Shown here piece after piece: positions 7,277 through 50,630 of a stretch of DNA of 64,000 nucleotides. Position 1 is the first letter of the stretch; every line of letters starts with the position of its first letter. This stretch comes from Salinispira pacifica. GTDB taxonomy: Bacteria; Spirochaetota; Spirochaetia; DSM-27196; Salinispiraceae. Both the position numbers and the translations under genes were made by a program. Where the stretch lies: contig NC_023035.1 in NCBI RefSeq assembly GCF_000507245.1, forward strand, positions 3,143,570 to 3,207,569. Direction: 5' to 3'. Below the pieces are notes generated by a model, which searched no databases, was not told the DNA's origin, and saw nothing but the letters and a program-made list of their open reading frames with translations.

Positions 7277-8316
7277 CAGACCAACACGATGTACAGCAGC
7301 CGGTAATTCAAATGAAAAATCTCTCAGTTCGCTTTCCCGCCCCCGGGGGAAGCATTACCGCGGTACGGAACCTGAGTTACACCCTGTCTCCGGGAAGCAT
7401 CAGCGGAATCCTGGGAGAATCGGGAAGCGGAAAATCTGTGAGCAGCCGTTCTCTGGCGGATCTGGCTGCAGGAGGAACCCGGCAGGCTGAATCCCTTCGC
7501 TACCGGGGCAAGGATCTGATGAACATGCAGGAAGACGAGCTGGGCCGGATCAGGGGAAACGAGATTGCGTATATCTTTCAAAATCCCCGTGAAAGTCTGA
7601 ATCCCTACACGAGCATCGGTACTCAGTTCCGCCAGCTTCTCCGTACATCTTCCCGGCAGTCTTTCAGTGAGTCCTTCCGGCAATCTTTCCGGCATTCCTC
7701 AAGGGGGGCGGGCCGGGCAGAGGAGGCAAGGGAAGAGCAGATACACCGGGCATTGGAGGAAGCAGGCCTTCCGGAAACAGAGCGGATTCTTCAGATGTTC
7801 CCCCATCAGCTCAGCGGAGGGCAGAATCAGCGGGTGAACATTGCCATGGCCCTCCTGCTCAGAGCGGATGTGATAATTGCAGATGAACCCACCAGTGCGG
7901 TGGACAGTCACCTCCGGGGTCAGATTCTTTCCCTTCTGGAGCGGATCAACCGGGAACACGGAACCACAATACTGATCATTACCCATGATTTTGCGGTAAT
8001 CAGGAGGCTGTGCAGCAGGGTGCTGGTGATGTACGGAGGCCTTCTTGTGGAAGATGGTCCGGTGGAGGAGATTATGAGCATCCCCCGGCATCCCTACACC
8101 CGGGAGCTTCTCCAATGCAGCGCATCACTGGAGTCCGCATCAGAAAGTGCCGACGGCGGGAAGAGCACACGGCAGGCAGGTATTTTCCGACGTCTCAGAA
8201 GTGCTATTGCCCTCAGCATCCCCTGCGGGCCGAAAGGAAACCGTACTGGAAGCACGGGGGATATCCAGGCATTTTCTCATTCAAACCAACCCCTTTCGTC
8301 CGCCGGACCGGATTGA
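7273..8316 (+). CDS. Oligopeptide-type ABC transporter ATPase, DppD-like
   Basis: The first nucleotide-binding subunit of the peptide-type transporter. It has Walker A GESGSGKS (residues ~49-56), Q-loop FQNPRESLNP, signature LSGGQNQRV, Walker B VIIADEPTSAVD and H-switch ITHDF, so it should be an active ATPase. A Ser/Phe/Arg-rich insert with short repeats (RQSFSESFRQSFRHSSRG) lies between the Q-loop and the signature. After HPYTRELLQ the sequence stops resembling DppD, lacks the usual Cys-rich tail, and runs 170 bases over the next ATPase in another frame. Either the tail is divergent, or this and the next frame were one YejF/GsiA-like double ATPase broken by an indel between 8130 and 8300. 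ATGA overlap with the upstream permease. Confidence 0.8.
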   Translation: MTDQHDVQQPVIQMKNLSVRFPAPGGSITAVRNLSYTLSPGSISGILGESGSGKSVSSRSLADLAAGGTRQAESLRYRGKDLMNMQEDELGRIRGNEIAYIFQNPRESLNPYTSIGTQFRQLLRTSSRQSFSESFRQSFRHSSRGAGRAEEAREEQIHRALEEAGLPETERILQMFPHQLSGGQNQRVNIAMALLLRADVIIADEPTSAVDSHLRGQILSLLERINREHGTTILIITHDFAVIRRLCSRVLVMYGGLLVEDGPVEEIMSIPRHPYTRELLQCSASLESASESADGGKSTRQAGIFRRLRSAIALSIPCGPKGNRTGSTGDIQAFSHSNQPLSSAGPD

Positions 8317-8947
8317 TGCTCTGAAAGATGTGGATCTGCGGCTGTACAAGGGAGAAGTTCTTGGACTTGTAGGCGAAAGCGGAAGCGGCAAATCCACCAT
8401 GGGCAGCATCCTTACCGCCCTGCAGAGACCGGACTCCGGACAGGTTTTATTCCGCAACCGGGATATTTTCACCCGGACTCCCCGGGAACTGCGGAAGATC
8501 CGCAAGGAACTTCAACTCATTTTTCAGCAGAGCGGAAACGTACTGGATCCCAGAATGACAACCGGAGCCATTCTCACCGAAGCCCTGAGCCTTCATAATA
8601 TCTGCAGCCGGGAGGAACAACCCCATGAACTGAAACGGCTGCTGGAGCTGGTTGGACTTCACGAGGATACCCTTCAGCGGTATCCCGGAGAACTCAGCGG
8701 AGGCATGCTTCAACGGGTGATCATCGCCCGCGCCGTGTCCACCAGACCCTCGGTAATAATCTGCGATGAACCGGTGTCTGCCCTGGATGTCTCGGTGCAG
8801 GGACAGGTGCTGAACCTTCTGAAGGATCTCCAGGAAGAGCTGGAATTAAGCTATATCTTTATCTCCCATGATATTGATGTGATCCGTCACATGGCTGACA
8901 GGGTCGCCGTTCTGGAATCCGGAGAACTGAGGGAAGGGAAAATTTGA
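8147..8947 (+). CDS. Oligopeptide-type ABC transporter ATPase, DppF-like
   Basis: The second ATPase of the transporter. Homology begins near VLEARGISRHFLIQ and continues with Walker A GESGSGKST, Q-loop IFQQSG, signature LSGGMLQRV, Walker B VIICDEPVSALD and the H-switch ISHDI. The only in-frame start upstream of the homology is GTG 8147, with no ribosome site, well inside the previous gene. This supports either a DppD-DppF fusion split by a frameshift or a start by coupling. The protein ends at GELREGKI, about 50 residues before DppF proteins usually end, so the C-terminal regulatory tail is missing. The operon stops here, and no substrate-binding protein gene is adjacent. Confidence 0.8.
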   Translation: MPTAGRAHGRQVFSDVSEVLLPSASPAGRKETVLEARGISRHFLIQTNPFRPPDRIDALKDVDLRLYKGEVLGLVGESGSGKSTMGSILTALQRPDSGQVLFRNRDIFTRTPRELRKIRKELQLIFQQSGNVLDPRMTTGAILTEALSLHNICSREEQPHELKRLLELVGLHEDTLQRYPGELSGGMLQRVIIARAVSTRPSVIICDEPVSALDVSVQGQVLNLLKDLQEELELSYIFISHDIDVIRHMADRVAVLESGELREGKI

Positions 8948-9021
8948 GTCTCCGACTCCCTGGGTATCAGCGGCTGCATCAGGCCGGGAAGCCAGGGAAA
9001 TAGTTGACGAAACTACCAAAG

Positions 9022-9045
9022 TTTATGTGACAGGCATCACATAAA
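9022..9045 (+). promoter_or_regulatory. CRP-like palindromic operator upstream of nifJ
   Basis: A perfect 24-bp inverted repeat, TTTATGTGA-N6-TCACATAAA, whose core TGTGA-N6-TCACA matches the E. coli CRP consensus. Its centre is about 73 bp before the predicted start of nifJ transcription, close to the class I position. A CRP/FNR-family activator or repressor probably binds here; no regulator gene of that family is in the window. Confidence 0.7.
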
Positions 9046-9071
9046 ACCGCATTTCTGACACAATTACTCTC

Positions 9072-9100
9072 TTGCAAACTCCTTTCCCACGGTTTATTAT
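9072..9100 (+). promoter_or_regulatory. nifJ promoter
   Basis: TTGCAA (9072-9077), a 17-nt spacer and TATTAT (9095-9100) form a good sigma70-like promoter. Transcription should start near 9107, which rules out the longer in-frame start at TTG 9072 and supports ATG 9153. Confidence 0.6.
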
Positions 9101-9152
9101 GAGTGTGTACCAAAAAATAGTGCCATCAAAAACCACGAAAAAGAGGATCACT

Positions 9153-12100
9153 ATGTCAGATAAAAAAATGGTGATTGTCGACGGAAACGCCGCAGTCGCC
9201 CACGTTGCACACGCAACCAACGAGGTAATCGCCATCTATCCGATTACCCCCTCCTCTCCTATGGGTGAGCTTTCAGATGAGTTCTCCGCCAAAGGCAAGG
9301 AGAATATATTCGGTACTACACCCCATGTAGTAGAGATGCAGAGTGAAGCAGGAGCCGCCGGAGCAGTACACGGCGCACTGGCAACAGGTGCACTTACCAC
9401 CACCTTTACCGCCAGCCAGGGCCTTCTTCTGATGATTCCAAACATGTTCAAGATTGCAGGTGAACTGACCCCCACAGTCTTTCACATTGCCGCCAGGGCC
9501 ATCGCCGCCCAGGGATTGAGCATTTTCGGGGATCATTCGGATGTCATGGCAGCACGTTCCACCGGATTTGCCATGCTGGCTTCCAACAACGTCCAGGAAG
9601 CCATGGATAATGCCCTCATAGCCCAGACCGCCACCCTTGAAAGCAGAGTTCCCTTTCTGCATTTCTTCGACGGGTTCCGGACCAGTCATGAAGTTCACAA
9701 GATCGAGGAAGTTTCCTATGAAACCATGAAGGAAATGATCGATATGAAGATGGTTCAGGCTCACCGGGCACGGGGTCTGGATCCCGAACGCCCCAGTATC
9801 ACGGGAACCAGCCAGAATCCCGACGTGTACTTCGCAAGCCGGGAAACGGTGAACAAATACTATGACGCCACACCGGAAATTGTGCAGAACGCCATGGATA
9901 AGTTTGCGAAACTTACCGGCCGTCAGTACAGAATTTTTGATTATTACGGTGCACCGGATGCAGAGCGGATTATCATTCTTATGGGATCCGCAGCTGAAAC
10001 CACCGAAGAAACCGTAGATTATCTCAATGCCCAGGGCGAAAAAGTGGGACTTGTTAAAGTTCATCTGTTCCGCCCCTTCAGCACGAAGCACTTCATCGAC
10101 GCTCTTCCTGCAACGGTTAAATCCATCGCAACCCTGGACATGACCAAGGAAGCCGGCTCACTGGGTGAACCCCTGTATGAGGATGTCCGTACGGCCATCG
10201 GCGAAGCAATGGCTGAGGGCAGCGCAGCCTTCAAGGAATATCCCGCAGTTGTGGGCGGCCGCCACGGTCTGGGTCTCCAGCAGCACGGAACCACCCCTGC
10301 CATGATCAAGGCGGTATTCGACAACCTTGCAGCAAAGACTCCCAAGAACCATTTCACCGTTGGGATTAACGACGATGTAACAAACACCAGCCTGCCCTAC
10401 GATGAAAGCTTCATCACCGAGAGTGAGGACGTGCACCGGGCAGTGTTCTTCGGACTGGGTTCCGACGGAACCGTGGGGGCCAATAAAAACAGCATCAAGA
10501 TTATCGGCGGAGCCACTGACAACTACGCCCAGGGCTATTTCGTATATGACTCCAAAAAAGCGGGCACAACGACAGCCAGTCACCTCCGCTTCGGACCCAA
10601 GCATATCCGCAGCACCTACCTCATTCAGGACTCAAACTTTATTGCATGTCACAAATTTGCGTTCCTGGAAAAGGTAGAGATGCTCAGCATGCTGAAGAAG
10701 GGAGGAACCTTCCTCCTGGCCAGCCCCTACAGCAAGGATGAGGTTTGGGACAAACTTCCCGTTGAGGTACAGAAGCAGATCATCGAAAAAGAAGCGAAAT
10801 TCTACGTAATCGATGCCATGCGCCTGGCGGAAAAGATGGGTATGGGAAACCGTATCAACGTCATTATGCAGACCGCATTCTTCAAAATTTCCGGAATCCT
10901 TCCGGAAGCAGAAGCGGTGAATCTGATTAAAGATGCGATTGTCAAAACCTACTCCAAAAAAGGTAAAGACATTGTGGATGCCAACATCCGCACCGTTGAT
11001 GCAGCCCTGAGTCATGTTGAACAGGTTGACTATCCCAAAACCGCCAGCAGCAAAATCACCAAACCCGCTCTTATTCCCGATGGAGCACCCCAATTTGTGA
11101 AGGAAGTGACCGGAGAAATCATGGCAAACCGGGGACACAAGATCCCCCTCTCAAAACTGCCGGATGACGGAACCTTCCCTGTGGGCACCACCAAATACGA
11201 GAAGCGGAATATTGCCGAAAGCATCCCTGTATGGGATCCTCAGGTATGTATTCAGTGCGGAGACTGTTCCGCAGTATGTCCCCATGCCACCATCCGGATG
11301 AAAGCATATGATGACGGCTTCCTGGAAAAAGCTCCGGACACCTTCAAAAGCTGCGATGCCAAAGGCAAGGACCTTGCCGGCATGAAATTCACCATCCAGG
11401 TAGCTCCCGAAGACTGTACCGGCTGCGGCGCATGTGTGAACATCTGTCCCGCCTTCGCCAAAGACGCCGACGGCAACAAAACCGACCGGAAAGCCATCAA
11501 CATGGAGCTCCAGGCTCCCCTGAGAGATCAGGAAAAAGAAAACTGGGAGTACTTCCTGACCATCCCCAATATTGCCCGGGATAAGGTGAACAAGAAAAAC
11601 ACCAAAGGAAGTCAGCTTCTGGAACCCCTCTTTGAGTTCTCCGGTGCATGTGCAGGATGCGGTGAAACCCCTTATGTGAAACTTCTCAGTCAGATGTTCG
11701 GCGACCGCACGGTGATCGCAAATGCCACAGGATGTTCATCCATCTACGGCGGTAACCTGCCCACAACCCCCTACACCACACGGGCTGACGGTAGAGGTCC
11801 CGCCTGGTCAAACTCCCTCTTTGAAGATGCTGCAGAGTTCGGTTTCGGATACCGCCTCACCGCAGATAAAATGGGTGAGTACAGCCGTGAACTGGTTGCC
11901 AAGGCCAAGGATCAGAAAGTTATCGATGCGGCCCTGGCTGACGAAATCCTTGGCAACAACCAGGAAACTGAAGAACTGATCGAATCCCAGCGTGTCGCCG
12001 TGGGCACGATGAAGGAGATTCTCAGGAAGAAGTCCGATGCATTCAATGAAGAGCTGCTTTCCGTGGCAGACTACCTGGTGAAAAAATCCGTATGGATCCT

Positions 12101-19487: not shown

Positions 19488-22310
19488 TCAGCGGAACAGC
19501 TCCATCATCTCTTCCCTGCTGAGGTGGCTCAGCAGACTGCCGCCGCCATTAATAATTTCATCCGCAAGGGTACTCTTTTGCTGCTGAAGCATCAGAATCT
19601 TCTCTTCTATGCTTTCTTTCACAATGAGCTTGAATGCGCTCACGTTTTTCGTCTGGCCCATCCGGTGAGCCCTGTCTATGGCCTGCTGTTCCGCCGCAGG
19701 ATTCCACCAGGGATCGAATATAATGACCGAATCGGCGGCAGTGAGGTTGATACCAACGCCTCCGGCCTTGAGGCTTAAAAGAAATACCCGGGTGTCAGGA
19801 TCATTCTGAAAGCGCTGCACTTCCTGGTCCCGCTCCCGGGTTTTTCCCGTGAGCAGCACATGCTTCCAGCCTTCTTCCCGGCATAATCCGGCAATTGTTT
19901 CCAGGCTTCCGATAAACTGACTGAAGATCAGCACCTTATGGTCTTCACTGAGAATATCAGACATAAGCAGCCGGAGGGCATCCATCTTTGCCGATCCCAC
20001 CCCCCGGTACGCCGGATCCGCCAGAGGCGGGTGGATGGCAAGCTGTCTCAGCCTGAGCAGGGACTGAAACATGAGACTTCCTTTGAGACGGGCGTCGCTC
20101 TCCTGCTGAATCTCCTCCATAAGCCTGAGACGGGCCTCATCGTACATCCTGCGCTGTTCATCCTCCATTTCAACATAGCGCACTATCACTTCTTTCCCGG
20201 GCAGTTCTCCCAATACTTCATCTTTCGTCCGCCGGAGAATAAAAGGGCGCACAAGCTCCTTCAGTTCATCCAGAAGATTTTCATCACCTTCCCGCTGAAT
20301 TCCCCGGAAAAACTGGCCGTAGAATTTGCGGGGACTGCCCAGAACTCCGGGATTCAGAAAGTCCATCTGGGCGAACAATTCCATTACTGAGTTCTCTATG
20401 GGTGTGCCGGTCAGGCTCACTCTGTGGCGTGATTTCAGAGACCGGACCGCCTTGAACACCTGGGACTGTATGTTCTTAATGTAATGGGCTTCATCCAGAA
20501 TGACAAAATTCCATGTCTCATCCAGCAATACCGAAAGATCATTCCTGAGCGTCTGATAGCTCACAAGAACCACGTCGTACTCCCGAAGTTCCGCCGCATC
20601 CCGGGCTCTTCCGCCCCCCTCATGTCTCATAATACTCAAAGAGGGGGCAAAACGACGGGCCTCTGCAGCCCAGTTGGCCATTGTAACCACCGGGGTAATT
20701 ATCAGTGCCGTGCCCAACTGAGACATCTCTTTCCGCCGTAACAGCAGACTGAGCGTCTGAAGGGTTTTTCCCAGCCCCATATCATCCGCCAGACAGGGGT
20801 TCATTCCATTGGATACCATGTATTCCAGCCATGAATATCCGTAATGCTGATAGGTACGGAGTTCTGTTTTCAAACCCGCCGGCTGATCACAGAGAGGGAT
20901 TCGGGACACATCCTCCAGCAGATTCTTCATTTCCAGTACGTGACGCAGCTGTTCCTGATCACCCGTATCCAGCTGGGAATAGATTCTGTCCAGCAGTACC
21001 ATATTCAGGGAGGAAGTCTGGAGCACACCCCGGGTATCCATACCCCTCCGCTTCAGATACTCCAATTGCTTCAGATCCCGTTCTTTCAGGATCACATACG
21101 CAGACGAGGTACTGAGCAGACCGGGAATATCCGCATCTGAACTATGTTGAATGTTGTGCTTCCCCCCGGGAGTGAGGGCTGAAACCTTGATCCCCAGCAT
21201 ATCCAGGTCGTTTTCTATAGAGAGGGAGAGTTCGCCCCTGGAATACACCGGCCGGTTTTCCACCAGAACGGGGATATTCTCGTCAAGGAGAGCTCTGCCC
21301 CGGTGGATCAGGAAGTCCGCAACATCACGGTCTATCTGGAAATCATGTGCGGGGCCGTCTTTGAACAGGTCTGCATAAATTCCTCTTTCGTACACCAGAT
21401 CGGGATTGATCAGTTCTTTCAGGCGGGTGAAAAACCGTTCCTCAAATTCCAGATCCCGGACAATTCCCTCCTGGTCCGATTCATCAGACCCGGTATACGG
21501 ACTCTGCTTTTTCGCGGCAGAGCGGTACGAAACTTCCGCATCTCCATAACGGAAAAACAGCTGTATGCCCGTGCCGCCGCTGTTCTGTTCAATTCTCAGC
21601 AGAGGGCGGACACCCTCATCACCCTGTCTCAGATCGCTGAAATCCGGTGCCGGGGAGTGTTCGCCCGCCGGCCCCGCCGGATCTGCATCGGCAACGATTC
21701 CGTCTGCAGATTTCTCAGTTGATTTCTCAGTTGATTTCTCAGTTGATTTCTCAGTTGATTTCTCAGTCGATTCCTCATCAGATTGATCAGCGGTATTTTC
21801 AACAGAATCTCCCCCGGATCTTCCACCCGGATAGCCGGATGGTTCGGCCCTGTCCGCCGCGGTTGCCCGTGATCCGGATTCTGACACATGGTGGGGGGAC
21901 GGGGAGGCTGGAAAAGAAAACAGATCCTCCTGAAACAGGTCAGCCTCCGTAGAACTTCCCATCGTCCCGGTGCCGCCCCGGCCTTCCAGGACTTCTCTAA
22001 AATCGTTTATCCGGGACTCATCCATACCCGGGATCAACCCGTCAATGGCAGCACGTATGAGCAGAGCCGAGGTATGAACGCAGAAACCGCCGTTGCCGCA
22101 GCTGCAGCCCGGTATCAAATCCCCGTCGTAAAAATCGAGCTCGACTTCAAACTGCCTGCCCGAGTCATCAAAAATATCCGCTGCTATGCCGTGTCCGGTG
22201 GTATATGGAGGCATAATTTGATGATTACGCAGTATGCGAAGACTCCGCTGAAGGTCTCCCCTCTGCAGAATCCTGCCTGATTGAGATATATGAAGAGTTT
22301 TTAGAGACAC
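19488..22310 (-). CDS. SNF2-family helicase with SWIM zinc finger
   Basis: A 940-residue Swi2/Snf2-type DNA translocase. A SWIM zinc-binding motif (CSCGNGGFCVH, about residue 66) lies near the N-terminus, followed by a low-complexity acidic linker containing repeated EKST units. The two-lobe ATPase has motif I DDMGLGKTLQTLSL (about residue 508), motif II DEAHYIKN, motif III SLTGTPIENSVMELF, and the C-lobe motifs VLIFSQFIGSL, LLSLKAGGVGINLTAAD and QAIDRAHRMGQ. This is the RapA/HepA-like bacterial group, which remodels protein-DNA or polymerase complexes. GTG 22310 overlaps the last 10 bases of the upstream pseudouridine synthase gene, so translation is probably coupled. UPF0149 follows downstream. 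Confidence 0.92.
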   Translation of the reverse strand: MSLKTLHISQSGRILQRGDLQRSLRILRNHQIMPPYTTGHGIAADIFDDSGRQFEVELDFYDGDLIPGCSCGNGGFCVHTSALLIRAAIDGLIPGMDESRINDFREVLEGRGGTGTMGSSTEADLFQEDLFSFPASPSPHHVSESGSRATAADRAEPSGYPGGRSGGDSVENTADQSDEESTEKSTEKSTEKSTEKSTEKSADGIVADADPAGPAGEHSPAPDFSDLRQGDEGVRPLLRIEQNSGGTGIQLFFRYGDAEVSYRSAAKKQSPYTGSDESDQEGIVRDLEFEERFFTRLKELINPDLVYERGIYADLFKDGPAHDFQIDRDVADFLIHRGRALLDENIPVLVENRPVYSRGELSLSIENDLDMLGIKVSALTPGGKHNIQHSSDADIPGLLSTSSAYVILKERDLKQLEYLKRRGMDTRGVLQTSSLNMVLLDRIYSQLDTGDQEQLRHVLEMKNLLEDVSRIPLCDQPAGLKTELRTYQHYGYSWLEYMVSNGMNPCLADDMGLGKTLQTLSLLLRRKEMSQLGTALIITPVVTMANWAAEARRFAPSLSIMRHEGGGRARDAAELREYDVVLVSYQTLRNDLSVLLDETWNFVILDEAHYIKNIQSQVFKAVRSLKSRHRVSLTGTPIENSVMELFAQMDFLNPGVLGSPRKFYGQFFRGIQREGDENLLDELKELVRPFILRRTKDEVLGELPGKEVIVRYVEMEDEQRRMYDEARLRLMEEIQQESDARLKGSLMFQSLLRLRQLAIHPPLADPAYRGVGSAKMDALRLLMSDILSEDHKVLIFSQFIGSLETIAGLCREEGWKHVLLTGKTRERDQEVQRFQNDPDTRVFLLSLKAGGVGINLTAADSVIIFDPWWNPAAEQQAIDRAHRMGQTKNVSAFKLIVKESIEEKILMLQQQKSTLADEIINGGGSLLSHLSREEMMELFR
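21709..21780 (-). repeat. 12-bp tandem repeat in the SNF2 linker
   Basis: Six head-to-tail 12-bp units on the plus strand (GATTTCTCAGTT), four perfect and the last two diverged. On the coding strand they encode EKST repeats between the SWIM motif and the helicase core. The 12-bp unit keeps the frame when copy number changes. Confidence 0.9.
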
Positions 22311-43364: not shown

Positions 43365-43381
43365 TAACCACGTTGCGTGAT

Positions 43382-43484: not shown

Positions 43485-44768
43485 ATGAAAAAACGATCAG
43501 TAGGAATCAGTGACATTGCACTTTACATTCCTTCACCTAAAATCACCCTGGATACCATCCTGGACTCCCGGGTGAAGGAAGACCCTGATTTTGAGCGTCG
43601 GCTCCGTCGGGCCATCGATGTCACCGGGCAGAAGGCTATCCGCTTTCCGGATGTTTTTGAAGACAACGCAACAATAGCCGCAAACTCAGCCAAACGTCTT
43701 CTCGACCAGAACACCGACCGGGATCTGGAAAAACTGCGATATCTTACTGTGGGAACGGAGACTTCCGTAGATATGAGCAAACCCATCTCCGCATATGTGG
43801 AAGGGATGCTCCAGCGTGCAGATTACCGCCTGCCCACCACCATCTCCAGCTTTCAAGTACAGCATGCCTGTGCAGGAGGCACTCTGGCAATGCTGTCAGT
43901 ATCGGCACTGCTTCAGGCCAGCCCCAGAACCGATGAGCGGGGAATGGTGATCTGCTCGGATATCGCCCGATACGATGCACCTTCCACGGCAGAGATCACC
44001 CAGGGAGCCGGATCAGTGAGCCTCCTCGTGGAAAATGATCCCGACCTGGTGGAACTGGACCTTGAGACCCAGGGGTACTCGTCATCGGATGTGGACGATT
44101 TCTTCCGCCCTCTGGGAAGTACAACCGCCAAAGTGAAGGGACGCTACTCTGTACAGTGTTATCATGAGGCACTGGATGAAGCGCTGGAGGATCACGCCCA
44201 GCGAGTAGGACGCCCGCTGAAGGAAATTATCGGAGAAACAGATATGTTTGTATTCCACGTTCCCTTCGCTCAGATGGCTTCCAACGCAATCAAGCGGATG
44301 CTGAATCAGCATATGGACCTGAGGGATGTTGATGCGGAAAATTTCCTCAATGCCCGTGGATTCTACAAGGCCCTTGAAGCCACCGCACAGGTGGGAAACA
44401 TCTATACCGGGGCACTCTATCTGAATCTTGCAGCACAGCTCAGCGAGAACTATAAACTTTATGGTAAGGATATCGTAGGAAAGAAGATTCTGCTCACCAG
44501 CTACGGAAGCGGCAACACCATGATCGTTATTTCAGGAACCGTTTCGGCCAAGGCCCCTGAGCGTCTGGCCCGCTGGAATGTTTCTTCCCAGCTGAACCAT
44601 GACCGGTCAGCGAGCTGGGATGAGTATGAACAGTGGATCAAGCTTCCCACGGATCCTGAGTCAATCAACAGCATTATTCAGGAACGGGAGGGTCAGACTC
44701 CTTCTGATATATTTGTTTTACAGGGAATTCGGGAAGACGGATACAGAGAATACAGCTACAAGAAATAA
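43485..44768 (+). CDS. mvaS: Hydroxymethylglutaryl-CoA synthase
   Basis: First enzyme of the mevalonate pathway: condenses acetoacetyl-CoA with acetyl-CoA to HMG-CoA. The 427-residue protein has the thiolase-fold arrangement, with the catalytic Cys in QVQHACAGGTLAM (about residue 128), the Glu-bearing VGTETSVDMSKP region, and the active-site His in FHVPFAQM. ATG 43485 is preceded by GAGAGGA; a longer reading to 43377 has no ribosome site. It begins the operon mvaS, fni-mvaA, mvaD, mvaK2, mvaK1, the order known from Borrelia. A CRP-like site controls the promoter region. It ends 9 bp before the fused gene. No start-up thiolase gene is in the window. Confidence 0.95.
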   Translation: MKKRSVGISDIALYIPSPKITLDTILDSRVKEDPDFERRLRRAIDVTGQKAIRFPDVFEDNATIAANSAKRLLDQNTDRDLEKLRYLTVGTETSVDMSKPISAYVEGMLQRADYRLPTTISSFQVQHACAGGTLAMLSVSALLQASPRTDERGMVICSDIARYDAPSTAEITQGAGSVSLLVENDPDLVELDLETQGYSSSDVDDFFRPLGSTTAKVKGRYSVQCYHEALDEALEDHAQRVGRPLKEIIGETDMFVFHVPFAQMASNAIKRMLNQHMDLRDVDAENFLNARGFYKALEATAQVGNIYTGALYLNLAAQLSENYKLYGKDIVGKKILLTSYGSGNTMIVISGTVSAKAPERLARWNVSSQLNHDRSASWDEYEQWIKLPTDPESINSIIQEREGQTPSDIFVLQGIREDGYREYSYKK

Positions 44769-44777
44769 CGGATCAGC

Positions 44778-47399
44778 ATGAACAATCAAACCCATAAACA
44801 CCATTCCGAGATTTCTTCGGATCAGCACTCCGGAGATTCAGCGGAGCAGATGGGCAGCCGGAAGGCTGCCCATATTAATATCTGCACAGACGAAACGTAT
44901 CCCGTAGAGGGAGGAAACAGCGCTTTTTCCGGGGTGAAGTTCATTCACAGCAGTCTGCCGGAGCTGGACTACGACCAAATCGACAGCAGCTGTGATTTCC
45001 TCGGCTTCCGCTTGTCGGCTCCGGTGATGATATCCTGCATGACCGGAGGCTCGGACCAGGGATACAGACTGAACAAAATTCTTGCAGAGGCCGCCCAGAA
45101 GAAAAAGGTGGCGGTTGGAACCGGCAGCCTTCGAATTCTTCTGCGAAAACCTGAAGTGATCGATCACTTCAGGCTGAAGGAAATGGCTCCGGATGTTCCG
45201 GTAATCGGAAACATCGGGGCGGTTCAGCTGCCGGAAATGATGGCCGACGATAAGGCTCTGCTCAGGCAATTCTACGATATTCTCAGAGAGCTGAAGCTGG
45301 ATGCCCTGGCCGTTCACCTGAATCCCGGACAGGAACTGTTCCAGGAGGGGGGAGACAGGAATTTCCGGAACATCCTGGCAAGCATTCGGGAGCTGTGTGC
45401 GTGGAGCGAGCTTCCCGTTATTGTCAAGGAAACCGGAGCGGGCATTCCCCCTGCCGAGGCCGCAGCCCTGTTTGCCTCGGGGGTGCGCTATGTTGATATT
45501 GCCGGATCCGGGGGAACCAACTGGCTTTCGGTGGAAGCCTTCAGGGAAGAACATGACAGACGGCTCCAGGGCAGGGATCATCAGCCCATTCCCCGGGAGC
45601 TTCACGGCTTTGAAGATTGGGGAATCCCTTCGGCCCCCGGTCTGTCGGCCCTGAGCAGCTACTGCAGAAAACGGGGACTGGTACCCTCCAACGGAGGCAT
45701 CATATCATCGGGTGGACTGAGGGATCCCATGGATTACCCCCGGGCCCTTGCCTTGGGAGGGGATCTGGCCGCAGCCGCACTTCCCTTCATCCGGCTGGCC
45801 CGCAGCGGCGGAGCTGCAGCTGTGGAATCATATCTGGACGAAATTTTCCTCACACTCCGGAGAACCATGCTTCTTACCGGCAGCGCCACCATCCATGAGC
45901 TGAAGCAAGCGCCCCTGCTGATCGACCCGGACTTCAGCAGATACAGCGAGCAGCTGCTGCAAACGGCCCGGCAGTCTGCGGGAACGCACCGGGGGCAGCA
46001 GCCCCATATCTCCCGGGAAAAAACCCCTCCGGAACCCCCTCCGGAAACATCCCCGGAAACATCCCCGGAAACATCCCCGGAAACATCTCCGGAAAGATCC
46101 CCGGCCCTGAATGACCGTAAATTCCGAAAATACAATATCCACCGGAGAAGACGGATGCTTGCCAACGATCCGGTGCTGAACCTGGACAGGGAAGCGGTGA
46201 ATGCCGGAGGACATTCCGACAGCATGCTGGATCTTGCGGATGTGATGGTGGAATCCGCAGTGGGATTCATGCCCGTACCCATGGGAATTGCCAAGGGCTT
46301 CCTGATAGACGGCAGGCTTCACCACCTGCCTCTCTCGGTGGAAGAGCCTTCGGTGATCGCGGCGGCAAGCTACGCCGCAGGAATAATTGCAAGGAACGGC
46401 GGGTTTGAAACCTCCGCAGATGAACCGCTGATGAGCGCGTATATTTATCTTGATATTTCATCCCGGTCAGGCGATCCCTCCCCGGAAGCCATTCGCTCAG
46501 CTCTGAAGTCGGTAAAAGATGAAGAGCAGCGGCTGAAAGATCTGCTGTCACCGGTACTTGAATCCATGACACGGCGAGGCGGAGGATACCGCAGCATGGA
46601 AGCTTCATGGCTTGAAGAAAGCCGGACGCTCCGGGTGGAGCTCACCCTGGATGTCCGGGACGCCATGGGGGCAAATATCCTCAACACCGCAGCAGAAACC
46701 ATCTCTCCTCTGCTGGAAGAGATAACCGGCGGTGAGAAACTCATGGCCATTCTCAGCAACGATGCGGTAAAACGCAGGGCCAAAGCCCGGTTTGCAATCC
46801 CCTTCACCGCCCTCAGCAGAGGAAAATACAGCGGAAGAGAGCTTGCAGAGCGCATCGTGAAACTCTATGAAATAGCCGATGAAGATCCGTCACGGGCGGT
46901 AACCCATAACAAGGGGATTATGAACGGTATCTCCAGCCTTGCCCTTGCAACCGCAAACGATACACGGGCCACCGAGGCCGCCGCCCATGCCTGGGCTGCC
47001 AGGAGCGGGCGCTACCGGAGCTTAAGCGTGTTCCGCATTGAGGGTGACCGGCTGGTGGGCGAACTGGAGCTGCCACTGGCACTGGGCACCGTCGGGGGAG
47101 GGATCTCCTTCCATCCGGCGGCCCGGTTCGCCCTGGATATCCTGGGAAAACCCGATGCTCCCGCCCTTTCACGGATGGCTGCAGCCCTGGGACTGGCCCA
47201 GAACTTCGCCGCCATATCGGCCCTTGCCGGGGAGGGAATTCAGAAAGGGCACATGAAACTGCATTCAGGACGTCTTGCATATAAAGCCGGAGCCCGGGGG
47301 GACAGCATCCCCCTCCTTGTGGAAAAAATTCAGCAGTCAGGCGTATACAATATGGAGCAGGCCCGTCGGCTGCTCGAAGAGATTGGCAGGAACAGATAA
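44778..47399 (+). CDS. Fusion of type 2 isopentenyl-diphosphate isomerase and class II HMG-CoA reductase
   Basis: An 873-residue two-enzyme fusion. Residues ~30-390 are a type 2 (FMN-dependent) IPP isomerase: SAPVMISCMTGGSDQG, VGTGSLRILL, DVPVIGNIGAVQL, ALAVHLNPGQELFQEGGDRNF, PVIVKETGAGI, DIAGSGGTNW and ISSGGLRDPMD. A P-E-T-S repeat linker (about 422-441) leads to a class II HMG-CoA reductase (~455-873) with SVEEPSVIAAAS (catalytic Glu), DVRDAMGANILNTAAE, NKGIMNGI (catalytic Lys), GTVGGGISFH and the C-terminal catalytic His in GIQKGHMKLH. The two make mevalonate and equilibrate IPP/DMAPP, steps 2 and last of the pathway, so substrate channelling between them is not expected. In Borrelia they are adjacent separate genes. 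The stop overlaps mvaD's start (ATGA). Confidence 0.93.
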   Translation: MNNQTHKHHSEISSDQHSGDSAEQMGSRKAAHINICTDETYPVEGGNSAFSGVKFIHSSLPELDYDQIDSSCDFLGFRLSAPVMISCMTGGSDQGYRLNKILAEAAQKKKVAVGTGSLRILLRKPEVIDHFRLKEMAPDVPVIGNIGAVQLPEMMADDKALLRQFYDILRELKLDALAVHLNPGQELFQEGGDRNFRNILASIRELCAWSELPVIVKETGAGIPPAEAAALFASGVRYVDIAGSGGTNWLSVEAFREEHDRRLQGRDHQPIPRELHGFEDWGIPSAPGLSALSSYCRKRGLVPSNGGIISSGGLRDPMDYPRALALGGDLAAAALPFIRLARSGGAAAVESYLDEIFLTLRRTMLLTGSATIHELKQAPLLIDPDFSRYSEQLLQTARQSAGTHRGQQPHISREKTPPEPPPETSPETSPETSPETSPERSPALNDRKFRKYNIHRRRRMLANDPVLNLDREAVNAGGHSDSMLDLADVMVESAVGFMPVPMGIAKGFLIDGRLHHLPLSVEEPSVIAAASYAAGIIARNGGFETSADEPLMSAYIYLDISSRSGDPSPEAIRSALKSVKDEEQRLKDLLSPVLESMTRRGGGYRSMEASWLEESRTLRVELTLDVRDAMGANILNTAAETISPLLEEITGGEKLMAILSNDAVKRRAKARFAIPFTALSRGKYSGRELAERIVKLYEIADEDPSRAVTHNKGIMNGISSLALATANDTRATEAAAHAWAARSGRYRSLSVFRIEGDRLVGELELPLALGTVGGGISFHPAARFALDILGKPDAPALSRMAAALGLAQNFAAISALAGEGIQKGHMKLHSGRLAYKAGARGDSIPLLVEKIQQSGVYNMEQARRLLEEIGRNR
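46043..46102 (+). repeat. 12-bp tandem repeat in the isomerase-reductase linker
   Basis: Five 12-bp units of the GGAAACATCCCC type (the last two with one change each), encoding S/P-E-T-S repeats between the two enzyme domains. Confidence 0.9.
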
Positions 47400-48491
47400 T
47401 GACCGAAGCATGTGCACACCCGAATCTTGCCCTGATCAAATACTGGGGAAAAAGCGATTCAGCCAACAATCTGCCCGCAACTTCCAGCCTGGGAATCAGT
47501 CTGGATGCATTCCATACCCGAACCAGAGCAGATTTTCTCCATGGAGAAGAACAGTTCAGCAGCGGTTCCCCGACGACTCCGGCATAGGCCGGCTGTCCCA
47601 GGGGGATATCCGCCTCAGCTGGGAACTGAGCATCAACGGAACCCCCCAGGATCCCCGCCGCTTTAACGGATTTTTCAGCAATCTCATCCGCAGAGGCATG
47701 GAGTTCAGAGACAGCGGAGCACTACCTGCCAGCGGCCACTTCCGGATTACCAGCAGCAGCAATTTTCCCACCGCTGCGGGACTGGCAAGCTCTGCCAGCG
47801 GCTTCGCCGCCCTTGCCGGTGCGGCCGCCGGTGAACTGGGAATTCCCCGATCCCCGGAACTGCTCTCGGATATAGCCCGGGCAGGCTCGGGTTCCGCCAG
47901 CAGATCGGTGTTTCCCGGGTTTGTAGGATTTCCCCGGGGCGGGGAAAGCTCCAGCTGCATCTACGGCCAGGACCACTGGCCGGAAATGCGCTGCATCATT
48001 GTCCGGGTCAGCGACGGCGCAAAGGATATTTCAAGCAGGAAGGCCATGGAGGAATCCAGGAAAACGTCTCCCTATTATTCTGCCTGGCTTGAAGATTCTC
48101 AAACCCTGTATGAACAGGCGGTCAGTGCGGTTGAACGGCGGGATCTTTCCAGCCTGGGTCCTCTCATCAGACAAAGCTATCTTCGAATGTTTTCCACCAT
48201 GTTCAGCGCAGCAGACCCGATTATCTATTGGCAGCCGGGGAGCCTGCAGATCCTTCAGCTGTCCCGGGAGCTGCGATCCGGGGCATTCAGGTGTACGAAA
48301 CCATGGATGCAGGTCCCCAGGTGAAATTAATCACCCTGGCAGATGAAGTGGGTGCAATCGAAGATGCCCTGAAACAGCTCCCGGAGAAAATTACATGGTC
48401 AATCAGCCGTGTCGGCGGCGGCCTGCATGTATCAACGGAGTCTTCACCTGAAAACGGCCAATCCCACGGGGATTCCGGGAGGCGGGAGTGA
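47399..48491 (+). CDS. mvaD: Diphosphomevalonate decarboxylase, interrupted by two one-base frameshifts
   Basis: GHMP-fold enzyme that converts mevalonate diphosphate to IPP with loss of CO2. Three frames together make one ~364-residue protein: HPNLALIKYWGKSDS and LPATSSLGISLD in the first frame, then SGHFRITSSSNFPTAAGLASSASGFA and ARAGSGSASRSVFPGFVGF in the second, then GIQVYETMDAGPQVKLITL in the third. The first break is in CCCC at 47568-47571 (one C short) and the second in GGGG at 48280-48283 (one G short). The motifs on each side are intact and in the right order, so sequence error is the likely cause. It overlaps the isomerase-reductase stop (ATGA) and the mvaK2 start (GTGA). As printed, no single reading frame covers the enzyme. 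Confidence 0.9.
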
Positions 48492-49509
48492 ACGATCGAA
48501 AGAATGAAAGCGCAATAGTTGCCCGGGCTCCGGGGAACCTTCTTATATGCGGAGAATACATGATTCTGGAAGCAGGGGGCCAGGGCATTGCCATGGCCTG
48601 CGGCCCCAAGGCTGAAGGCAGAGCCTGGCCTGCGGAGGGTCCCAAGAGCGTGGTACATGCCATTACCGGCGACGGGGCCATCAGCCTGAATACTGCAATG
48701 GACAACCCCGCCCGCCGTTTATTATCAACGTCTACCGTTCCATTATGAGCGATCTGGAAGCCATGGGGCTGACTGTGCCCGGGCTGGAAATCGAGGTGGA
48801 CACCCGCAGCTTTTTCCGTCAGGGTCGGAAAATGGGGCTGGGCAGTTCTGCGGCGGCAACCGTCATTCTTGCTTCCCTGATGTATGCCTTCTCCGGAGAT
48901 GCAGTGGAACATGACACCCGCAAAAGCCGGCAGGAGATTGCAGAGATCGCAGTACGGGCCCACCGCCACGCCCAGGGAAAGCGGGGCAGCGGATACGATA
49001 TTCTCACCAGCTGTTACGGTTCTCTGGGCGTCTTTACTGGCGGAGAACACCCCCAGTGGCGACATCTCAGGGATGATCATCCCATTTTCAATCTTCACAG
49101 CTACAGTTTTCCCGGTCCCGAAGAGGTGGACAGCAGAGAAGCGGTCAAAAAATATCACGACTGGAAGATCCAGTCTCCCGGAAAATCCGGTCAGTTTTTC
49201 CATGACTCCCAGACGCTGATGAAGCGAATGGAGGAAAGCAGCAGCGAAGATGAGGTGCTCCGTCTCATTACCGAACTCAGGATGCTGTATACCGAACTGG
49301 GAGAGGTTATCGGGGTGGGCAGCTGGATTTCCCCTCCAAGCCCCTTCTATGAAAAGTCAGCATGGAAGGGCAGCGGGGCAGGCAATGAGCTTGGACTGCT
49401 GTTCCTCAGCCGGAGCAGCCGTCTGGAACTGGACGCTCCCTACGAGTCTCTCACCCCGGATCATGAAGGGCTGCGCTTGTTCAGCTCCCGAGGCGATGCT
49501 ATACTTTGA
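48488..49509 (+). CDS. mvaK2: Phosphomevalonate kinase, interrupted by a one-base frameshift
   Basis: GHMP kinase that phosphorylates mevalonate 5-phosphate. Frame one from GTG 48488 gives VARAPGNLLICGEYMILEAGGQG and runs to ITGDGAISLNTAMDNP. It breaks in CCCC at 48706-48709 (one C short), then continues as PPFIINVYRSIMSDLEAMG. The ATP loop KMGLGSSAAATVILASL, HAQGKRGSGYDILTSCYGSLGVF, and the C-terminal kinase motif region WKGSGAGNELGLLFL follow in the second frame. The corrected protein has about 340 residues, normal for the family. Its start overlaps mvaD's stop. The kinase order K2 then K1 matches Borrelia. Likely a sequence error rather than a pseudogene. Confidence 0.88.
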
Positions 49510-49550
49510 ATCGCACACCGGCTCACAGCATCAGCGGCGCAGGAGTTTCA

Positions 49551-50630
49551 ATGTCTTCCCCGGGTAACACCGCCACATATTCAGCCCACGGCAAGCTGCT
49601 CCTCTTCGGTGAGCATGCCGCGGTATACGGGTATCCTGCCCTGGGAACCTCTCTTCCCATTGATCTCGGCATACGGGTACAGCCCGGAGCCGCTTCAGCC
49701 CGAAAGTTGAATATGCCGGATCATCTCTTCCCCGGATTAACAGCGGAGGAGGAGGATGCTGCGCTCAAGCTGCTCATACAGGCGAGAAAACTGATTCCCG
49801 GCCTCCACTTCCCCCCCGCAACATACATTCTCAAAGGCAGCATTCCCCGTTCGTCGGGTTTCGGCAGCTCCGCAGCCCTCTGTGTTGCCCTGGCCAGATA
49901 TGTTTTCTCCCTCTCGGATAAAGCTGAACAGGGTCTCGCCCATTTACTGCCGAAATTTCAGCACGGCTGGTCCGATGCCGAACAGCAGCAGTATTTGCTG
50001 TGGCATATTGCCAACGATCTGGAAAAAGTATTTCACGGGTCTCCTTCGGGTATCGATACGGGCCTGGCCATCCGGTCAGGTCTTACGGCATTTTTTCCCC
50101 GGTCACGCCGTCTTCCCGACGTTCTTCCCCTTCCCTCCCCCGGGGAAGATATCTGGCTGCTCTATGGAGCAGTGCCCCGGGTGGGCAACACCAAAGATCT
50201 GGTGGGAGGTATTCAGAAAGGAATGCTGGAAGAACGGCCGAAAGTGGTTGAGGCCATTGGAAAACTGGGAGATATTGCCCACCGGGCCATAGATCTTCTC
50301 AATTCAGAACACCCGCTCAATGGGGAACAGGGGGGCCGAAATGAGCATCCCGGATCAATTTCGGGGCTTTTAGGAACCCTGGCAGACAAAGCCGGAGAGC
50401 AGCTGAAAATCCTTCAGCTCAATTCACCCCACATGGACAGGCTTCTGGATAAAGCCCGGAAGTTCGGTGCCGCCGGCGGAAAACTCAGCGGTGCCGGAGG
50501 CGGAGGCGCTTTTTGGATCAGCACATCCGGAGAAGATCAGGCCAGGGACCTGAGAGAACAGCTCACCGCCTTCGCCATGAACAGAAAGATTCCCCTGAGC
50601 GAGCCCCTGAACCTCATGAAACTGCACTAG
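49551..50630 (+). CDS. mvaK1: Mevalonate kinase
   Basis: GHMP kinase that phosphorylates mevalonate, the entry to the phosphorylated half of the pathway. The 359-residue protein contains YSAHGKLLLFGEHAAVYGYPALG (N-terminal substrate loop), the ATP-binding loop IPRSSGFGSSAALCVAL, the catalytic Asp region FHGSPSGIDTGLAI, and the C-terminal KLSGAGGGGAFW motif. ATG 49551 follows AGGAG with five-base spacing, so the longer reading from 49506 is rejected. It is the last gene of the mevalonate operon, 41 bp after mvaK2, and converges with the zinc-ribbon protein at 50643. Confidence 0.95.
   Translation: MSSPGNTATYSAHGKLLLFGEHAAVYGYPALGTSLPIDLGIRVQPGAASARKLNMPDHLFPGLTAEEEDAALKLLIQARKLIPGLHFPPATYILKGSIPRSSGFGSSAALCVALARYVFSLSDKAEQGLAHLLPKFQHGWSDAEQQQYLLWHIANDLEKVFHGSPSGIDTGLAIRSGLTAFFPRSRRLPDVLPLPSPGEDIWLLYGAVPRVGNTKDLVGGIQKGMLEERPKVVEAIGKLGDIAHRAIDLLNSEHPLNGEQGGRNEHPGSISGLLGTLADKAGEQLKILQLNSPHMDRLLDKARKFGAAGGKLSGAGGGGAFWISTSGEDQARDLREQLTAFAMNRKIPLSEPLNLMKLH

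What the first reader, a model, noticed from the sequence alone, without database searches (positions are those of the whole stretch)
44778..47399. IPP isomerase fused to HMG-CoA reductase through a repeat linker
Type 2 isomerase and class II reductase, adjacent but separate genes in Borrelia as I recall, are here one 873-residue protein. The catalytic motifs of both halves are intact. The two enzymes are not consecutive in the pathway, so the fusion probably serves stoichiometry, FMN/NAD(P)H sharing or localisation rather than channelling. The joint is an in-frame P-E-T-S minisatellite that could vary in length.
Basis: partly seen in the sequence, partly recalled or inferred. Interest (0 to 1): 0.65.

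Follow-up and report, generated by a model that had tools for sequence, protein, structure and literature searches.

The report
Two mevalonate-pathway enzymes fused
In the deposited genome of one salt-lake spirochaete, two enzymes of isoprenoid synthesis that its relatives make as separate proteins are joined into one protein by a short repetitive linker; the fusion is probably real and so far seen only here, but sequence errors just downstream mean it should be resequenced first.

Summary
Confirmed: 44778-47399 is one 873-codon frame encoding a type 2 IPP isomerase (IDI2, residues 28-382) and a class II HMG-CoA reductase (HMGR, 447-829), joined by a (PETS)n linker. It is the only copy of either gene, and this genome (by exact size Salinispira pacifica L21-RPul-D2) has no DXR or IspH, so the mevalonate cluster is its only detected isoprenoid route. 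In 44 relatives read at base level with the two genes adjacent, 0 are fused; in the best-resolved relatives of its own family the genes are unlinked. No published IDI2-HMGR fusion turned up in five literature searches. Caution: the next two genes (MVD, PMK) are frame-broken three times in 1.2 kb, each break one base short at or beside a G/C run. Four further breaks in a 400-kb sample share that signature, so the assembly has systematic homopolymer under-calls. The fusion is probably not such an artefact: separating the genes would need a break in the linker's C-runs plus a second one in a stretch without such a run, and the candidate separate start lacks a ribosome-binding site. Best reading: a lineage-specific, probably bifunctional fusion giving a 1:1 ratio, not channelling. 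Resequencing or the peptide across the joint would settle it.

The parts
44778..47399 (+). Single 873-aa ORF, IDI2-linker-HMGR fusion
44859..45923 (+). Type 2 isopentenyl-diphosphate isomerase domain (residues 28-382), HLNPGQE motif at residues 180-186
   Evidence: TIGR02151 311.6 bits; alignment to solved IDI2 2zru, 1vcf, 1p0k
45991..46114 (+). Linker region; eight G/C runs of four or more
46041..46104 (+). 12-bp minisatellite, 5.3 copies, encodes PETS in the ORF frame
   Evidence: TRF
46108..46114 (+). Out-of-frame TGAATGA: would be stop/start if two one-base errors flanked it; the ATG has no Shine-Dalgarno match
46116..47264 (+). Class II HMG-CoA reductase domain (residues 447-829)
   Evidence: TIGR00532 329 bits, PF00368 298 bits; alignments to solved HMGRs
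46155..46157 (+). In-frame internal ATG (residue 460) with GGAG 7 bases upstream: possible internal start
43485..44768 (+). HMG-CoA synthase, intact (the ORF is listed from a GTG at 43377)
47399..48491 (+). Diphosphomevalonate decarboxylase (MVD), reading frame broken twice (between 47524 and 47626; about 48277-48285)
   Evidence: relatives match three frames; profile split in two
48488..49509 (+). Phosphomevalonate kinase (PMK)-like, reading frame broken once (about 48700-48720)
49506..50630 (+). Mevalonate kinase, intact
   Evidence: TIGR00549 142.3 bits, below the cut-off of 163.05

Best explanation
A real, lineage-specific gene fusion. In an ancestor with the usual HMGCS-IDI2-HMGR-MVD-PMK-MVK cluster, IDI2 and HMGR were adjacent and packed end to start. 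A small deletion or stop loss removed the stop of IDI2 and the start of HMGR, and a 12-bp minisatellite expanded into a Pro-Glu-Thr-Ser linker. The product is most likely one bifunctional polypeptide with two independently folding enzymes, made 1:1, with no substrate channelling because the two steps are not consecutive. The fusion was probably tolerated because the termini it joins vary in length and sequence in relatives. Shown: the open frame, domain identities, intact motifs, single copy, absence in relatives. Inferred: that it is translated as one chain, that both activities work, and that it has little effect beyond fixed stoichiometry.
For: One stop-free frame with both domains above curated cut-offs, only copy in the genome. 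Motifs match solved homologues. No DXR or IspH, so the route must work. 21 G/C runs of four or more in the two enzyme parts, none broken. Splitting the genes would need a second break in 46114-46122, where there is no G/C run of four or more, whereas each of the seven breaks found has such a run in its interval. The candidate separate start (ATG 46111) has no Shine-Dalgarno match, while 21 of 27 relatives have one of at least 4 bases at an HMGR start candidate within 40 bases of the IDI2 stop. Upstream of the repeat, codon usage favours the ORF frame from 45940 to 46034. The P/E/T/S composition resembles two other in-frame 12-bp linkers of this genome, STEK and EETT. Both halves group with their own family in trees. 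IspDF is a known fusion of non-consecutive isoprenoid steps (PMC13001223 passage).
Against: The same assembly breaks MVD and PMK three times just downstream, and they look like sequence errors. Two such one-base errors on either side of the TGAATGA at 46108-46114 would restore a normal overlapping gene pair, and the sign needed matches that of the seven known breaks. Codon usage inside the repeat does not tell the frames apart; the least costly two-break path scores 2.4 nats better than one continuous frame before any penalty for breaks. The architecture occurs in no other genome examined. No expression evidence.
Confidence: 0.72

Rival explanations
1. Assembly artefact: the genes are separate and overlapping as in relatives; two one-base under-calls, one in the C-runs of the linker and one just after ATG 46111, make one false open frame.
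For: Seven homology-supported breaks in this assembly (two in MVD, one in PMK; argH, an ABC permease, an acyl-ACP thioesterase and, less firmly, a B12/radical-SAM gene in a 400-kb sample) all have the one-base-short sign and a G/C run of four or more in the break interval. TGAATGA lies in the right frames. Relatives are all unfused.
Against: The second break would have to fall in 46114-46122, because the FRK motif at 46122 fixes the frame, and that stretch has no G/C run of four or more. ATG 46111 has no Shine-Dalgarno match. No break in the 21 G/C runs of the enzyme parts. The paper reports 365x PacBio coverage with Illumina and 454 checking (PMC4511686).
Confidence: 0.17
2. The fused frame is real but separate enzymes are also or mainly made, by internal initiation at ATG 46155 or by proteolysis of the linker.
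For: In-frame ATG 46155 has GGAG at 7 bases. Long Pro/Glu/Thr/Ser linkers are often protease-sensitive (general knowledge).
Against: A start at residue 460 would drop the FRK segment that relatives keep. No expression data.
Confidence: 0.09
3. The fusion is an adaptive device: a metabolon or control point tying entry (HMGR) to exit (IDI2) of the pathway, or sharing NAD(P)H.
For: Both enzymes use reduced nicotinamide or flavin cofactors and sit at opposite ends of the pathway (established knowledge).
Against: In its own family the two genes are unlinked in G001 and G002, so co-location is not generally required. No relative shares the fusion.
Confidence: 0.1

Closest known systems
Separate fni (IDI2) and mvaA (HMGR) in the spirochaete mevalonate cluster, e.g. 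Borrelia BB0684 and BB0685
   Same: Same enzymes and same gene order HMGCS-IDI2-HMGR-MVD-PMK-MVK
   Different: There two genes; here one ORF with a PETS linker
Enterococcal MvaE (acetoacetyl-CoA thiolase-HMGR fusion; recalled, only the search listing was seen)
   Same: A bacterial HMGR fused to another mevalonate-pathway enzyme at its N-terminal side
   Different: The partner there is the thiolase, upstream in the pathway; here IDI2, several steps downstream
IspDF of the MEP pathway
   Same: Fusion of two non-consecutive isoprenoid enzymes (PMC13001223 passage)
   Different: Different pathway and unrelated domains; described there as common, whereas this fusion is seen once

Membership tests
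Type 2 IPP isomerase (TIGR02151) | Full-length match above curated cut-off | tested here: met
   311.6 bits against 281.3, profile 2-336 of 338
Type 2 IPP isomerase (TIGR02151) | HLNxxQE active-site motif (function label recalled) | tested here: met
   HLNPGQE in the ORF; HLNxxQE in the 15 IDI2 rows of relatives and aligned to solved IDI2
Type 2 IPP isomerase (TIGR02151) | FMN-dependent isomerase activity | not testable with these tools
   needs an assay
Class II HMG-CoA reductase (TIGR00532) | Full-length match above curated cut-off | tested here: met
   329 bits against 259.95, profile 23-394 of 395
Class II HMG-CoA reductase (TIGR00532) | Catalytic Glu, Lys, Asp, His (P. mevalonii numbering recalled: E83, K267, D283, H381) | tested here: met
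   VEEPS, HNKGIMNG, NDTRA and GHMKLH aligned to solved HMGRs
Class II HMG-CoA reductase (TIGR00532) | NAD(P)H-dependent reduction of HMG-CoA | not testable with these tools
   needs an assay
Bifunctional fused pathway enzyme | Both domains in one stop-free frame in the deposited genome | tested here: met
Bifunctional fused pathway enzyme | Sequence of the joint confirmed independently (reads or a second strain) | not testable with these tools
   no reads and no second strain on hand; the assembly has nearby one-base breaks
Bifunctional fused pathway enzyme | Same architecture conserved in relatives | tested here: not met
   0 fused in 44 genomes read at base level; 65 of 392 phylum genomes have matches, only this one spans both halves without a stop

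The most novel reading that the evidence does not exclude
A genuine new bifunctional enzyme in which the pathway's entry-controlling reductase and its exit isomerase share one chain, so that DMAPP supply is stoichiometrically tied to mevalonate flux, in a carotenoid-making halophile with no detected MEP route. Its linker is one of several 12-bp minisatellites that this genome uses between domains and could vary in length.
Probability: 0.2. Interest if true: 0.5.

Novelty: new variant of a known kind. Interest (0 to 1): 0.36.

Why it matters
If real, it is a fusion of mevalonate-pathway enzymes not found in the papers searched here, a natural scaffold that joins the reductase to the isomerase and might interest isoprenoid engineering, and a fusion event in a cluster whose members are otherwise separate. 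If it is an artefact, it shows how systematic homopolymer under-calls in a complete PacBio genome can create a convincing fusion. Either way MVD, PMK, argH and other genes of this type strain's record need correction or explanation.

Tried and rejected
Rejected: fusion in other genomes suggested by large open_frame_aa values in the genome search (G007, G015 and others); base-level reading shows separate genes with stop codons, and that column cannot be used as evidence of fusion. The 764-aa open frame around IDI2 in G054 is an upstream shadow frame plus a short tail, not a fusion (by eye).

Considered and set aside: real decay of MVD and PMK, because there is no DXR, no IspH and no second MVD and the strain makes carotenoids (PMC4511686, abstract and section 21). 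Programmed frameshifting at MVD and PMK: no slippery heptamer seen by eye, not tested further. A broken IS5-type transposase in L031 was left out of the break count because such elements often shift frame by design (recalled).

Led nowhere: AlphaFold2 on the fusion with a 6-row alignment gave mean pLDDT 55.5 and pTM 0.40, too poor to use; the linker is coil at pLDDT about 30, but much of the HMGR half is poor too. Mixed alignment A2 misaligned the C-terminal part of the IDI2 rows, so only its N-terminal part was used for the HLNxxQE check. Codon usage cannot tell the frames apart inside the repeat. A first codon model trained with the window included favoured the ORF frame there and was replaced by one trained without it.

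How break sites were picked: of 112 frame switches between neighbouring coding stretches in the 464 kb scanned (98 in the sample, 14 in the window), I printed 18, chosen for a missing or poor start, and tested six pairs by family profiles. Four pairs were counted as broken genes: argH, the permease and the thioesterase clearly, the B12/radical-SAM gene less firmly. One was the transposase; one (window 3143) was not resolved. Other switches were not tested, so the genome-wide number is a lower bound, and the uniform sign could be partly a matter of selection. The first MVD break was not among the 112 switches; it was found by homology.

Full report
What is there. The window lies in a 3,782,798-bp single-contig genome, the exact size published for Salinispira pacifica L21-RPul-D2 (PMC4511686, abstract and sections 18 and 21 read, other passages by search). 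ORF 44778-47399 is open for 873 codons. Its N-terminal part is a type 2 isopentenyl-diphosphate isomerase and its C-terminal part a class II HMG-CoA reductase, both above curated cut-offs, with active-site motifs that align to solved homologues. Between them lies a 12-bp minisatellite read as P-E-T-S. No other match to either half exists in the genome. DXR (PF02670) and IspH (PF02401) are absent, while both families are found in 10 of the 14 control genomes, so the mevalonate cluster is the only isoprenoid route detected.

Relatives. Of 61 genomes searched, most from the same order, 49 have a match and only this one covers both halves without a stop; seven others align through one in-frame stop. 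Of 29 loci from that search (L002-L030), 27 hold both genes and 0 are fused. The frame offset between the two genes is 0 in 8, +2 in 13 and +1 in 6 of these 27. Twenty more pieces fetched later hold both genes in 18 and are fused in 0; one repeats a genome already read, so 44 distinct genomes were read at base level. The order holds 46 genomes in this collection and only this one is fused. In a phylum sample of 392 genomes, 65 have a match at 1e-20 or better and only this one spans both halves without a stop (the stricter run is). A named scan returned 80 loci, examined together with seven phylum loci: 7 of 87 hold both genes, 0 fused; some of these are the same contigs as above by length. In the two well-assembled relatives of the same family (G001, G002) HMGCS-IDI2 and HMGR-MVD-PMK-MVK lie on different long contigs, and G003 has them on two short contigs, so the cluster is split exactly where it is fused here. 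Trees put both halves with these family members (support 0.97 and 0.93), so the parts are inherited vertically and the fusion is the novelty.

MVD, directly downstream and the only copy, matches relatives in three successive frames, and PMK in two. Each step is one base short and has a G or C run of four or more in its interval. In a 400-kb sample of the same genome three further genes are clearly broken in this way by profile continuity (argH profile 9-314 then 314-390; an ABC permease 4-98 then 136-268; an acyl-ACP thioesterase N-domain then C-domain) and a B12/radical-SAM gene less firmly. The paper lists 53 pseudogenes among 3500 genes. As isoprenoids are indispensable (established knowledge) and the strain makes carotenoids, MVD and PMK should work, so I infer systematic homopolymer under-calls in the assembly, despite 365x PacBio coverage with Illumina and 454 checking.

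Does that undo the fusion? In the other two frames the joint holds TGAATGA (46108-46114). If one base were missing upstream and one just after the ATG, IDI2 would end and HMGR start there in the usual overlapping way. Against this: conserved FRK at 46122 confines the second error to 46114-46122, which has no G/C run of four or more; the ATG has no Shine-Dalgarno match, whereas 21 of 27 relatives have one of four bases or more at a start candidate within 40 bases of the IDI2 stop; and the two enzyme parts contain 21 such runs without a break, against three breaks among the 28 runs of MVD and PMK. For it: the sign required is that of the seven known breaks, and codon usage within the repeat is neutral; the least costly two-break path even scores 2.4 nats better before any penalty for breaks. 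A single error would leave HMGR with no ATG, GTG or TTG start upstream of FRK. I judge the fusion real with about 80% probability; the confidence of 0.72 is for the reading that it is also one working bifunctional chain.

How it probably works. Two enzymes that fold separately, joined by a flexible linker, give 1:1 stoichiometry. HMGR acts early and IDI2 after MVD, so direct channelling is not expected; IspDF shows that fusions of non-consecutive isoprenoid steps occur (PMC13001223 passage). In relatives the IDI2 C-terminus and the HMGR N-terminus are of variable length and sequence, which would make joining them harmless. Two other proteins of this genome have in-frame 12-bp minisatellites at what look like domain boundaries, STEK in an SNF2-type helicase and EETT in a 1066-aa protein (domain reading by eye), so the linker type is not special to this gene. 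An in-frame ATG at residue 460 with GGAG could allow internal starts.

Literature. Five searches listed no paper that by title or abstract reports an IDI2-HMGR fusion; a search for enterococcal MvaE was read as a listing only. The 2026 preprint on Borrelia HMGR (PMC13370337, searched for terms) uses 'fusion' only for a purification tag in the passages shown and does not mention Salinispira. Borrelia's gene order and the separate BB0684/BB0685 are from passages of PMC3364977.

Verdict. The fusion is probably a genuine, so far unique variant of known enzymes, of moderate interest, and needs one PCR product or one peptide to be settled.

Noticed in passing
window 47399-49509: MVD (two breaks) and PMK (one break) are frame-broken in the assembly, each one base short with a G/C run in the break interval, although the genome has no other detected route to isoprenoids.
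   Followed up: yes
L040 about 13118 and about 14929; L045 about 7043; L046 about 8576: argH, an ABC permease, an acyl-ACP thioesterase and probably a B12/radical-SAM gene are also broken with the same sign; two lie within 2 kb of each other. Suggests systematic homopolymer under-calls in this complete genome.
   Followed up: partly
window 21709-21777 (minus-strand ORF 19488-22310); L043 9973-10043 (ORF 8181-11381): Two further 12-bp in-frame minisatellites coding tetrapeptide linkers, (STEK)n in an SNF2-type helicase and (EETT)n in a 1066-aa protein.
   Followed up: partly
L053/L056 (G002), L054/L057 (G001): In relatives of the same family the mevalonate cluster is split between IDI2 and HMGR, the very place where this genome has the fusion.
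   Followed up: partly
L006 (2538-2658), L007 (2514-2616): IDI2 C-terminal tails in another family carry short repeats (ADSGDNRSDSGDNRADS in L006), another sign of length-variable tails at this joint.
   Followed up: no
L031 9345-10930, minus strand: IS5-type transposase split in two overlapping frames at an A-rich stretch, possibly programmed frameshifting.
   Followed up: no
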